Shown here: positions 5,136-62,271 of the stretch, one piece after another
Layout of the letters: each line of letters begins with the position of its first letter
How positions within the stretch are numbered: the stretch's first letter is position 1
Source of the DNA: a virus
Strand: one strand, 5' to 3'
DNA length: 64,000 nucleotides
IMG/VR virus record: IMGVR_UViG_3300040758_000214
Location: 62,001-126,000 of that record
Translations under genes and position numbers: made by a program
Notes under the pieces: generated by a model
Database searches by the model: none
What the model was told of the DNA's origin: nothing
The model's input: the letters and a program-made list of their open reading frames with translations, nothing else

Positions 5136-5152
5136 CTAATATTTGTTCTAAA
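5136..5152 (-). promoter_or_regulatory. Promoter-like motif TTTAGAACA upstream of terminase
   Basis: On the minus strand the sequence reads TTTAGAACAAATATTAG about 50 bases before the terminase ATG, in a stretch with no gene. The same TTTAGAACA nonamer followed by an AT-only tract occurs before the genes at 5396-6628 and 61414-61701. Promoter function is inferred from position and repetition only. Confidence 0.45.
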
Positions 5153-5340
5153 CTATTTTTAAGTATGGATTAATTTACTATATATATTAATACCTGAGAG
5201 TTGAGTTGTTATGTTATTTGTGTTAGGAGTAAAAAATGTATCAATGGAATCTGCTTGTGTATGTTTGTATGAACTATGGAGATGTGGGAGTGCAACACAA
5301 CAAGTAAGAGGGTAAAATAATTTATTTTATATATAGGCAA

Positions 5341-6641: not shown

Positions 6642-6658
6642 TTAATATATGTTCTAAA
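6642..6658 (-). promoter_or_regulatory. Promoter-like motif TTTAGAACA before the baseplate-like gene
   Basis: The minus strand reads TTTAGAACATATATTAA, 22 bases before the ATG at 6628 and directly downstream of the hairpin terminator at 6674-6704. It shares nine bases exactly with the motif before terminase. Confidence 0.45.
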
Positions 6659-7348: not shown

Positions 7349-7472
7349 TATTTGGTGGCTCGGTTTCTTTCGCACTTCGTTTACAGAACCTTTACGATAG
7401 AAGGTGTAGGGCTTACACGAACTTAAACCGACTGTAACCCGGACCGATAGTTTTGTCTGACACCACCAAATA
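7349..7472 (-). ncRNA. Structured, pseudoknot-capable RNA candidate (strand uncertain)
   Basis: A 124-base intergenic block clearly richer in G+C than its neighbours. Its ends form a perfect 10-bp helix (TATTTGGTGG / CCACCAAATA). Inside, 7360-7366 pairs with 7425-7431 and 7376-7380 with 7417-7421, nested; 7381-7386 pairs with 7432-7437 and crosses the first pair, giving a possible pseudoknot. Small hairpins at 7388-7405 and 7404-7418 are alternatives. The pairing is symmetric, so the strand is not fixed; co-transcription with neighbours favours minus. I could not match it to 5S rRNA, tRNA, tmRNA or a riboswitch. Confidence 0.5.
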
Positions 7473-7477
7473 TTTAT

Positions 7478-8542
7478 TTAGTTTGAAGGATTCAAAATGG
7501 CTAATGCATCTGTAATTTGGGATGGAATTACAAGAACACGTTCTGCAACATCTTCCATTAGAAGTTTAGCATTAATATTCTTTTCAAGGGTTGAAAATTT
7601 ACAAATAGCATTAAACAATTTCCAAGATGAAAGTGTTTCCCCTTCATTTACAACAGTTGAAAGATAATTGGAAATATCAACTCTTCTTTTCTTTCCAACT
7701 TTTTCAATTAAATCCATCATTCTTAAAAGATCATCATCTGTTACTGGAGTATTAAAATTAGTCTGGATTAAACTCAATGCATTCTGAGAAAATGCTTGTA
7801 CATAATTTCCAACCGCCGCAGATAATTCACTATGAGCTGATGTTAAATGAATTTGACGAATTGAACTAAGTTTATTTCTAAATCCAAAAGAAATAGATTT
7901 TTCATCACCTTCTAAAACTACAAACCCAAATGAGATTGTAATAGCTTTACGCCCATTATAACTATTTGTTACAATTACTTCTGGATATACATCCCCAACC
8001 TGAGGAATATTGGATACATTTTGAATAACCATTTCATGATACATATAATCCAATGTTGGAGGAATCATAGTATATTCTCTAAATATTGGAGTCTGTATTT
8101 CAGAAATCATTTCTCTAATTTTATTATTTAATGTATCATTGCCTGTAAATTGATAATTATTAGAAACTATACATACATATTTTGGATTACTTGTTTCTTC
8201 ATTTTCTCCTGCGATTGGTCTGGTATATAATCCTAAGAAAGGTACATCAATACTATCAATGGTTTTTAACTCTTTATAAAACACCTCACCAAAAGAATCT
8301 CTATAATTATAAATTCCTGGTTCTGTTAAAGTTAAACCCATTTCTTCATATGCTTCATTGAATTTTCTGTGCGTTGATGTCGTAGTCGGTGATTGCTGTG
8401 TATCACCTTCAGTAGCTTCACCTTGCTCAATTAAATTATTAATAATATCACTTGCTCTGGTTAAATTTTCATTAATCACTGGTTCATTAATTTCTTGAGT
8501 TGGATCTAAATTAATTGCAGTTTCTTCCATTTTATTCTCCAT
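7478..8542 (-). CDS. Unknown protein, DUF932-like by general pattern
   Basis: A 354-residue soluble protein with an acidic, low-complexity N-terminus (residues 1-60, rich in Glu, Thr and Asn) and an alpha/beta body. The order of strands and helices, with YKELKTIDSIDVPF early and a C-terminal helical part, is loosely like DUF932 proteins of phages and plasmids, but I see no decisive motif. The acidic tail is placed at the N-terminus. It lies alone between the RNA candidate and a run of small genes. Confidence 0.55.
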   Translation of the reverse strand: MENKMEETAINLDPTQEINEPVINENLTRASDIINNLIEQGEATEGDTQQSPTTTSTHRKFNEAYEEMGLTLTEPGIYNYRDSFGEVFYKELKTIDSIDVPFLGLYTRPIAGENEETSNPKYVCIVSNNYQFTGNDTLNNKIREMISEIQTPIFREYTMIPPTLDYMYHEMVIQNVSNIPQVGDVYPEVIVTNSYNGRKAITISFGFVVLEGDEKSISFGFRNKLSSIRQIHLTSAHSELSAAVGNYVQAFSQNALSLIQTNFNTPVTDDDLLRMMDLIEKVGKKRRVDISNYLSTVVNEGETLSSWKLFNAICKFSTLEKNINAKLLMEDVAERVLVIPSQITDALAILNPSN

Positions 8543-12779: not shown

Positions 12780-12998
12780 CTATTCCTTTACAAAATCACA
12801 ATAATATTCATAATATCTATTTACTCGATTACTAAACACTTTTCCTCTTATTACATCTTTACTCCCACATATAACATGATTTAAAAGTTCATCACATAAT
12901 AAACAATCTTTACATTTTTTACAACCAGGTAAATTAAATGTTCTATCTGGATATATACCTACATTTTCACCAAACTTAATTATTTGTATACTTTGCAT
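12780..12998 (-). CDS. Mini CCHC zinc protein, cluster A copy 1
   Basis: A 72-residue protein with the motif CKKCKDCLLCDELLNHVIC: Cys-x2-Cys-x11-His-x2-Cys with an invariant DEL before the His. This spacing fits one zinc ion in a treble-clef or zinc-knuckle-like fold. It is one of four tandem paralogues here and three more at 46.6-47.3 kb. The role is unknown; RNA, DNA or protein binding are possible. This copy has an extra Cys between the ligand pairs. Confidence 0.7.
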   Translation of the reverse strand: MQSIQIIKFGENVGIYPDRTFNLPGCKKCKDCLLCDELLNHVICGSKDVIRGKVFSNRVNRYYEYYCDFVKE

Positions 12999-13001
12999 AT
13001 A

Positions 13002-13223
13002 TTAATCACCTGTATTTAAAGACTGACAAATATATCCAGAATCTGTCTTTGTAAATACTGTTTTAAACTTTTCTATTTTTTTAGATCCACATATAATGTG
13101 TTCTACAAGTTCATCAACAAAAATAGCATCTTTACATTTTTTACATTGAGAAAAATCTTCAAGAAAATCAGCAGGCCATACCTCATTTTCCCATTCTATA
13201 GCTTGTATAGTTTTCATAATCAA
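13002..13223 (-). CDS. Mini CCHC zinc protein, cluster A copy 2
   Basis: 73 residues with CKKCKDAIFVDELVEHIIC, the same Cys-x2-Cys-x11-His-x2-Cys core as its neighbours, and the shared opening KTIQAIEW. It starts three bases after the upstream stop. The second Met (residue 3) matches the starts of the paralogues better and may be the true start. Confidence 0.7.
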   Translation of the reverse strand: MIMKTIQAIEWENEVWPADFLEDFSQCKKCKDAIFVDELVEHIICGSKKIEKFKTVFTKTDSGYICQSLNTGD

Positions 13224-13441
13224 TCCTTAGTATTTAAATAGAAACACTTATAATGCCTACAATCATCATCTAATTTAAATACTTTATATTTTTCTATCTT
13301 TTCAGATCCGCATATAATATGGCCTATAAGTTCATCAATGAGAATAATATCTTTACAATTTTTACATTCAAAAATAAACTTCATTCCATCATAAATAGGA
13401 AAAACTTTATTATTCCATTTAACGAATTGAATAGATTTCAT
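13220..13441 (-). CDS. Mini CCHC zinc protein, cluster A copy 3
   Basis: 73 residues with CKNCKDIILIDELIGHIIC. The N-terminal MKSIQFVKWNNKV and the core are plainly paralogous to copies 1, 2 and 4, while the last 20 residues vary. It overlaps copy 2 by 4 bases (ATGA). Confidence 0.7.
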   Translation of the reverse strand: MKSIQFVKWNNKVFPIYDGMKFIFECKNCKDIILIDELIGHIICGSEKIEKYKVFKLDDDCRHYKCFYLNTKD

Positions 13442-13443
13442 AA

Positions 13444-13662
13444 TTAATCACCAGTATTTAAATAATTACAAATATAGTCGCCATTCTCATCTAATTTAAA
13501 TATACTACAATTTTTTATCCTTTGAGACCCACATATAACATGTTGTATAAGTTCATCTACAAGAATAGCATCTTTACATTTTTTACAATGGCTACAACAA
13601 TCATGATTGTATCTAATACTTTCAATTTTATTATCCCATTTTGCATATTGTATAGTCTTCAT
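13444..13662 (-). CDS. Mini CCHC zinc protein, cluster A copy 4
   Basis: 72 residues with CKKCKDAILVDELIQHVIC and an additional HDCCSH cluster before it. It is the first of the four-gene array in transcription order and follows the interrupted gene at 13665-14078 by two bases. Confidence 0.7.
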   Translation of the reverse strand: MKTIQYAKWDNKIESIRYNHDCCSHCKKCKDAILVDELIQHVICGSQRIKNCSIFKLDENGDYICNYLNTGD

Positions 13663-59239: not shown

Positions 59240-59300
59240 TTAAATTTATTTAATTCTATATGGGAATCGAAAAAATAAATCACTTTTCCGACGGATCAGA

Positions 59301-59360
59301 GGAATAACCAATTTTTTTATTAAACGAATTACTAAACTTAGTAGCATTTATTGGTTATCC
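59301..59360. repeat. Inverted repeat (hairpin 1 of a tandem set)
   Basis: AGGAATAACCAAT and ATTGGTTATCCT pair over 12 bp with one bulge. This is the first of four hairpins in the gene-free stretch 59240-59662. No reading frame is credible here. Confidence 0.45.
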
Positions 59361-59389
59361 TATTGGAATTTATATTTATTTGTTCTATT

Positions 59390-59450
59390 ATTTTATGGAT
59401 ATTAGATTTGTAAATATCACAGTATATTACAAAAAGTATATCCATAAAAT
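59390..59450. repeat. Inverted repeat (hairpin 2)
   Basis: A perfect 13-bp outer stem ATTTTATGGATAT / ATATCCATAAAAT, with an inner 7-bp stem TTTGTAA / TTACAAA, makes one 61-base hairpin or cruciform. Confidence 0.55.
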
Positions 59451-59466
59451 TATAATAAAGGAGTTT

Positions 59467-59515
59467 TGAAATGTAACTTTTATATCAATACTCTAATCTT
59501 AAAGTTCACATTTCA
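59467..59515. repeat. Inverted repeat (hairpin 3)
   Basis: TGAAATGTAACTTT pairs with AAAGTTCACATTTCA over 14 bp with one bulged base. It is followed by T-rich DNA on the plus strand. Confidence 0.5.
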
Positions 59516-59545
59516 GTTTTCCTTTTTATCCTAAAATTTTAAGGT

Positions 59546-60937: not shown

Positions 60938-60954
60938 ATAAATACTTAATTTTA

Positions 60955-61320
60955 TCCCCACCCCTACCTTGGGAATTGGATCGTTTCATCAAAGTCCATG
61001 TGGGTATTCCAAGGACGGCTCCACCGAAATTGGCATCCCGGCTTCATTGCCTCCCCACTATCCTATAATGGATCATTCTGATGATTAGGGTATAGAATAT
61101 CAACCGGTCTCAATTTCTACTTTTCGACTAAGATGGTGGAGTCGAAATATTTACTACCCCGATTTGTCAACCCTTTTAGGTCGATGGCTGCCAATACCGG
61201 TCTATTGTCAAGGGTCTGACTTAGATCGACATTTGATCATGAGCTTTGCGCCGTTGTTACAAGGCACGCTCTGACGATGGGGTGTAATTTAATCATACCC
61301 ACACAAGGACAATGATATGA
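60955..61320 (-). ncRNA. 23S rRNA-like RNA (domains IV-V, including L1-stalk helices)
   Basis: A gene-free, GC-richer block whose minus strand is co-linear with bacterial 23S rRNA from roughly E. coli 1850 to 2240 (positions from memory). Blocks: GGCGCAAAGCTCATGATC (61235-61252); CCGGTATTGGCAGCC (61186-61200) for CCGGTAAACGGCGGCC; ACTCCACC...GAAATTGA (61110-61142); and an L1-stalk block (60987-61064) with AGGATAG, GGGAGGC, TGGAGCCG, CCTTGGAATACC, TTTGATG, about 70% identical over 80 bases. Helix 75 is GTGGG/CCCAC here where E. coli has GGTGG/CCACC, a compensatory change. Much is deleted and the peptidyl-transferase 3' half is absent. It may extend only to about 61252. Confidence 0.7.
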
Positions 61321-61413
61321 TTATAGAAATGAATGTTGAATTCCATGATCTAAACTTTAAAACCCTTCATTCTAAAAATTAATATATATAGCAACTCAAA
61401 CTATAATGGATTT

Positions 61414-62137: not shown

Positions 62138-62271
62138 ATAAAAATTTTGGCGTATTCTTATGTTCAGACTGAGAGCCGTTGTTGTCTATCCAAAGTACTG
62201 GAATCTTTATAAGACAGCTTCACCGCAATCTCTAGTAATAAGTAACCTGCATGTTTATACACCAAATCATG
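62138..62271 (-). ncRNA. Structured spacer RNA between tRNA-Asn and tRNA-Gln
   Basis: The 134-base spacer fits exactly between two tRNAs, so RNase P and tRNA 3' processing would release it. Its ends pair over 9 of 10 positions (62146-62155 with 62257-62266). On the minus strand an inner TGTCT/AGACA stem with AAAG/CTTT forms a long hairpin. Size (about 120 bases) and the ATTTGGTG opening of the closing helix resemble the RNA at 7349-7472. I could not assign a family. Confidence 0.45.

What the first reader, a model, noticed from the sequence alone, without database searches (positions are those of the whole stretch)
7349..7472. GC-rich intergenic RNA with closing helix and pseudoknot
A 124-base stretch between two genes stands out in base composition and has a perfect 10-bp closing helix and mutually consistent inner helices, including a crossing pair. 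In an AT-rich genome such a block is probably a functional RNA. It does not match classes I can recognise.
Basis: seen in the sequence. Interest (0 to 1): 0.6.

Follow-up and report, generated by a model that had tools for sequence, protein, structure and literature searches.

The report
Folded RNA between two phage genes
Between two genes of an AT-rich metagenomic phage lies a 124-base RNA with an elaborate fold, which a related phage keeps through matching base changes; it belongs to no catalogued RNA family and its job is not known.

Summary
Window 7349-7472 is a structured RNA read on the minus strand, like the neighbouring genes. It is 44% GC in a 28% GC window. It has a perfect 10-bp closing helix (11 with a U.G), a linker-free three-way junction, and a crossing (kissing) helix between the P6 hairpin loop and the J1/2 strand.

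One homologue was found, in IMG/VR contig 3300050132_000201 (L009), 82% identical and at the same place 3' of the homologous 354-aa gene. Every one of the 8 base pairs that differs between the two is changed on both sides; 7 still pair. The downstream genes are unrelated in the two phages, which argues against a leader for one particular gene. A 150-kb relative (G001) has no recognisable copy, and a distant relative (L043) has an intrinsic terminator at this site.

Rfam gives nothing, and pattern scans of viral and prokaryotic collections found no third copy. It is not an intrinsic terminator, rRNA piece, tRNA or catalogued ribozyme, and is not alignable with the 62138-62271 spacer.

Most likely it is a self-contained phage RNA co-transcribed with its operon and released from AU-rich flanks as a stable small RNA (about 40%). 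Rivals: intercistronic cis element, two-state regulator, new ribozyme. Structure is well supported; function is inference.

The parts
7349..7472 (-). whole structured RNA (columns 1-124 of alignment A4; column i = window 7473-i)
7462..7472 (-). P1 5' strand, closing helix (10 Watson-Crick pairs plus one U.G)
   Evidence: pairs with 7349-7359; the two outermost pairs are swapped UA/AU in the homologue, both kept
7349..7359 (-). P1 3' strand
7442..7453 (-). J1/2 invariant stretch AAACUAUCGGUC, unpaired in the main fold; UCGGU at 7443-7447 can alternatively pair with ACCGA at 7360-7364 (fold B)
   Evidence: 12 of 12 identical in the homologue; alternative pairing appears in the RNAalifold consensus
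7432..7439 (-). P3 5' strand (crossing/kissing helix)
   Evidence: pairs with 7379-7386; 3 double compensatory changes and 1 mismatch in the aligned register; a 6-bp shifted register also exists in the homologue
7379..7386 (-). P3 3' strand, in the P6 loop
7425..7431 (-). P2 5' strand UCGGUUU
   Evidence: 7 pairs with 7360-7366, invariant in both phages
7360..7366 (-). P2 3' strand, contiguous with the P1 and P6 3' strands
7401..7424 (-). P4 hairpin (3 bp, UUC bulge, 5 bp, 5-nt loop)
   Evidence: two double compensatory changes, columns 49/72 and 56/68
7393..7400 (-). P6 5' strand CUAUCGUA
   Evidence: 7 pairs and one A.A mismatch with 7367-7374; in the MFE fold of both sequences
7367..7374 (-). 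P6 3' strand UGCGAAAG
7375..7392 (-). P6 terminal loop, contains the P3 3' strand
7478..8542 (-). upstream 354-aa gene; its stop codon lies 5 nt before P1; 75% identical in the carrier L009
7086..7331 (-). downstream 81-aa gene with SD AAGGAG shortly after P1; unrelated to the downstream gene in L009
6673..6707 (-). terminator-like hairpin with U run closing the operon, about 640 bases downstream
   Evidence: sequence; same position relative to the next gene in L009

Best explanation
A self-contained phage RNA. Shown: the minus-strand RNA of 7472-7349 has a conserved fold (P1 closing helix, P2 next to it, linker-free three-way junction P2/P4/P6, and P6 loop to J1/2 kissing helix P3), maintained by paired changes in a second phage. 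Inferred: it is transcribed as part of the operon of the 354-aa gene, since no promoter-like motif of this phage lies just upstream and a terminator lies beyond the next two genes. P1 brings the two ends together, AU-rich single-stranded flanks on both sides are cut (RNase E type), and a compact stable RNA of about 124 nt is released. It then acts through the unpaired invariant stretches (AAACUAUCGGUC and the P6 loop) on a protein or RNA partner. Released small RNA as the mode of action: about 40%; functional structured RNA of some kind: about 93%.
For: Homologue at the same place, 82% identical, compared with 80% for the terminase gene and 66% at terminase third codon positions, so it is constrained about as strongly as a conserved coding gene. 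All 8 varying pairs changed on both sides, 7 kept; sliding the pairing by 1-3 columns drops pairing from 99% to 39-45%. Outermost P1 pairs covary, so the ends are part of the structure. Unpaired AAACUAUCGGUC identical in both. It follows the stop codon of the 354-aa gene by 5 nt (window) and 8 nt (L009), while downstream genes are unrelated, so it is not tied to one downstream gene. Promoter-like motif TTTAGAACAWATAWTA occurs exactly upstream of the terminase and the next operon, not at the element. No U run follows P1.
Against: Only two sequences are known, so covariation rests on one comparison; P2 and P6 never vary. The energy model prefers other nested folds, and the P3 register differs in its best form between the two phages. 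A 150-kb relative (possibly incomplete) has no recognisable copy, so it is probably not essential to this phage group. No transcript data; release from the mRNA is not shown. No complementary target of AAACUAUCGGUC stood out in the phage sequences searched.
Confidence: 0.4

Rival explanations
1. Intercistronic cis element: the fold sits at the 3' end of the 354-aa cistron and sets differential expression inside the operon, by blocking 3' exonucleases, marking a processing site, or insulating translation of the next cistron.
For: It lies 5-8 nt after the stop codon in both phages and tracks the upstream gene, not the downstream one. The distant relative L043 has an intrinsic terminator, also a 3'-end structure, right after the same gene.
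Against: A simple hairpin would do for protection; conserved unpaired stretches and a kissing helix are more than a stabiliser needs. Relative G001 has no recognisable copy.
Confidence: 0.25
2. Two-state regulator (riboswitch-like or protein-sensing) controlling the next cistron: UCGGU at 7443-7447 competes with UCGGUUU at 7425-7431 for the same ACCGA strand, so the RNA could toggle between a pseudoknotted fold A and an open fold B.
For: Both competing partners are invariant in both phages; the consensus fold on energy is B while the paired changes favour A. The SD of the next gene follows P1 closely.
Against: The genes downstream are unrelated in the two phages. Neither fold includes the SD, and no expression platform is visible. 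Fold B energy is not consistently better (window -20.7 against -23.8 for A; L009 -31.0 against -27.4).
Confidence: 0.15
3. New self-cleaving ribozyme that cuts the polycistronic message.
For: Compact closing helix, pseudoknot and invariant unpaired core, in a position between genes; P1-P2-P6 with a loop-to-J1/2 crossing helix resembles twister in outline (inference).
Against: No Rfam ribozyme model matches at E<=10; only two sequences, so a catalytic core cannot be recognised.
Confidence: 0.1
4. No function: chance GC-rich inverted repeat that happens to fold.
For: Energy z-score only -2.3; known from only two phages.
Against: Every varying pair is doubly changed (simulated chance 5e-6 for a fixed fold, 0.005-0.013 with the fold re-chosen). 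Identity 82% against 66% at third codon positions of terminase.
Confidence: 0.06

Closest known systems
Orphan structured-RNA motifs from comparative genomics (for example the candidate sets of PMC2864571 and PMC8040213)
   Same: intergenic, defined by covariation, function unassigned; the second paper reports candidates next to phage domains
   Different: this one matches no Rfam 15 family and is known from two phages only; it was not compared with the full candidate lists of those papers
Small stable RNAs of phage T4 (RNA C and RNA D; recalled, no paper found)
   Same: short phage RNAs of similar size (recalled 119-140 nt) with unknown role
   Different: those lie in the tRNA cluster; this lies in an operon near the terminase; sequences not compared
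Twister ribozyme
   Same: closing helix, stacked inner helices, loop-to-internal-loop crossing helix, optional side hairpin (outline recalled)
   Different: no match to the twister models in Rfam; 0 nt on one side of the first internal loop against 30 on the other; no recognised conserved core
phi29 pRNA (RF00044)
   Same: about 120 nt, closing helix, loop-loop pairing (recalled), coded near packaging genes
   Different: no Rfam match; the phage encodes a large terminase; pRNA is recalled only from phi29-like phages

Membership tests
any Rfam 15 family | score at or above the family gathering threshold | tested here: not met
   none; best sub-threshold hits (Plastid-rpl20, SNORD46) are chance and differ between the two homologues
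intrinsic terminator | GC-rich hairpin directly followed by a U run | tested here: not met
   P1 3' end is followed by AAAUAAAGG; not listed by the scan
tRNA or tmRNA | ARAGORN or RF00005 match | tested here: not met
twister ribozyme | match to the twister covariance models | tested here: not met
twister ribozyme | site-specific self-cleavage | not testable with these tools
   needs in vitro transcription
HDV-like ribozyme | nested double pseudoknot with P3 hairpin directly followed by the P1 3' strand | tested here: not met
   other sequence and the 5' strand of another helix separate the P4 hairpin from the crossing strand
phi29-type pRNA | match to RF00044 and a phi29-type packaging ATPase | tested here: not met
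   no RF00044 hit; terminase belongs to PHROG terminase-large families
rRNA fragment or mimic | similarity to 23S or 16S rRNA | tested here: not met
   no significant hit to 2.3 kb of 23S plus 5S; none in E. coli genomes
T4 small stable RNAs (C, D) | discrete stable transcript during infection | not testable with these tools
   no transcript data
same family as the spacer RNA 62138-62271 | alignable sequence or shared inner helices | tested here: not met
   alignment score below shuffled mean; only the closing-helix ends are alike

The most novel reading that the evidence does not exclude
A new class of natural RNA with a loop-to-J1/2 kissing helix that toggles between two conserved folds or cleaves itself, used by a phage to divide a late operon.
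Probability: 0.15. Interest if true: 0.7.

Novelty: new variant of a known kind. Interest (0 to 1): 0.42.

Why it matters
Phage genomes hold few described structured RNAs of this complexity. Here the fold is supported by paired changes, its ends are exactly known, and it is small enough to transcribe, probe and solve. A role in an operon next to the packaging genes would add an RNA-level control to phage gene expression.

Tried and rejected
DNA similarity in phage, plasmid and E. coli collections: chance hits or none. Pattern scans: the 5' end, the 3' strand, the core and P2 with J1/2 in IMG/VR returned only L009 plus chance matches, as judged by the covariance model; the genome-collection pattern scan was empty. 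Covariance model R1 on the whole 150-kb relative, on the contig of L002 and on the genome of L043: no match. Antisense target of the invariant 12-mer: none stood out. AlphaFold of the 354-aa protein: unusable (pLDDT 34).

Full report
The window is bases 62001-126000 of a 143-kb linear virus record. Genes around the finding run on the minus strand: a 354-aa protein of unknown family (7478-8542), then 81-aa and 119-aa proteins, a terminator-like hairpin, a 410-aa protein of unknown function and the large terminase. The finding fills the gap between the 354-aa and the 81-aa gene, starting 5 nt after the stop codon.

Observation. The 124 bases are 44% GC in a 28% GC window, the most GC-rich of the 17 gaps examined. 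The closing helix is perfect over 10 pairs. Minimum free energy is only modestly low (z about -2.3 on either strand), so energy alone would not prove a structure.

Homologue. A scan with the 354-aa protein found IMG/VR contig 3300050132_000201 (L009), which has the element at 5154-5275, 82% identical, 8 nt after the stop codon of the homologous gene. The genes that follow are unrelated to those in the window. The element is about as conserved as the terminase gene (80%) and far more than its third codon positions (66%).

Fold. On the minus strand, numbering columns 1-124 from 7472 down to 7349: P1 1-11/114-124; P2 42-48/107-113; P4 49-51/70-72 and 55-59/65-69; P6 73-80/99-106 with one A.A mismatch; P3 34-41/87-94, which crosses P2 and P6 by joining the P6 loop to the strand between P1 and P2. 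P2, P4 and P6 meet without a single unpaired base, and the 3' strand 99-124 is continuous through P6, P2 and P1. Of 22 substitutions between the two phages, 16 fall in 8 base pairs, each changed on both sides; 7 of the 8 still pair. Control: sliding the 3' partners by 1-3 columns gives 39-45% pairing instead of 99%, and 0-1 double changes instead of 7.

Caveats on the fold. The P3 pairing in L009 has one U.U mismatch in the aligned register, and a perfect 6-bp alternative (GUCUGA/UCAGAC) six bases upstream on the 5' side. P2 and P6 are invariant, hence neither supported nor contradicted by change. A competing arrangement (fold B), in which UCGGU at columns 26-30 takes the ACCGA strand from P2, is also possible in both sequences and is the consensus on energy. 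The minus strand is favoured because two invariant U.G pairs would be A.C on the other strand, and because both copies follow the coding strand.

Distribution. The 150-kb relative 3300031813_000004 (terminase 76% identical) shows no match to the model anywhere in its record. A distant relative in a metagenome contig (L043, terminase 50%) has an intrinsic terminator directly after the same gene and no match. Pattern scans of IMG/VR and of the prokaryote collection gave no third copy. Scanning was limited to exact patterns, so distant homologues may exist.

What it is. Rfam 15 gives no family for either copy. It is not a terminator, tRNA or rRNA piece, and it is not a sequence relative of the spacer at 62138-62271. 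A probable promoter motif of this phage, TTTAGAACAWATAWTA, stands exactly before the terminase and the neighbouring operon but not before the element, so the element should be part of the operon transcript (inference).

How it most likely works. The conserved unpaired 12-mer AAACUAUCGGUC, the precise joining of both ends by P1 and the independence from the downstream gene fit best with a self-contained RNA, cut out of the AU-rich flanks and acting through its unpaired core (about 40%). A cis element for the 3' side of the 354-aa cistron (25%), a two-state regulator (15%) and a new ribozyme (10%) are not excluded. No tool here can show transcription.

Noticed in passing
window 61003-61065 (minus strand), inside a GC-rich noncoding stretch of about 450 nt at 60938-61413 directly upstream of tRNA-Pro: 63 nt match bacterial 23S rRNA at 81% without gaps (E 6e-7 in the phage collection, in a record annotated 23S rRNA). 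From memory the matched part looks like the L1-stalk region. The stretch 61069-61413 folds with z -2.4 and the whole has no Rfam match. A phage RNA carrying an apparent rRNA protein-binding site would be of interest in its own right.
   Followed up: partly
window 62138-62271 (minus strand): Spacer between tRNA-Asn and tRNA-Gln with a 10-bp closing helix UUUGGUGUAU/AUACGCCAAA followed by a U run; folding energy unremarkable (z -0.9), no homologue of the spacer found.
   Followed up: partly
window 5137-5152 and 6643-6658 (minus strand); L009 7608-7623: Repeated motif TTTAGAACAWATAWTA 15-45 nt upstream of genes, probably a promoter of this phage group; TTAATATATATAG is also shared upstream of terminase in three phages.
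   Followed up: partly
window 12780-13662 (minus strand): Four consecutive similar small genes of 72-73 aa with a C-x2-C...H-x3-C pattern.
   Followed up: no
L009 5270-5346: 38-bp tandem duplication covering the SD and start of the gene after the element.
   Followed up: no
window 59240-59538: AT-rich 299-nt gap with very low folding energy (z -5.2 to -6.3 on both strands) and several long inverted repeats.
   Followed up: no
L043 (BPGB01000002.1): A contig filed under a Woesearchaeota MAG carries a terminase and neighbouring genes of this phage group at 50% identity, so it is probably a phage contig binned with an archaeon.
   Followed up: no
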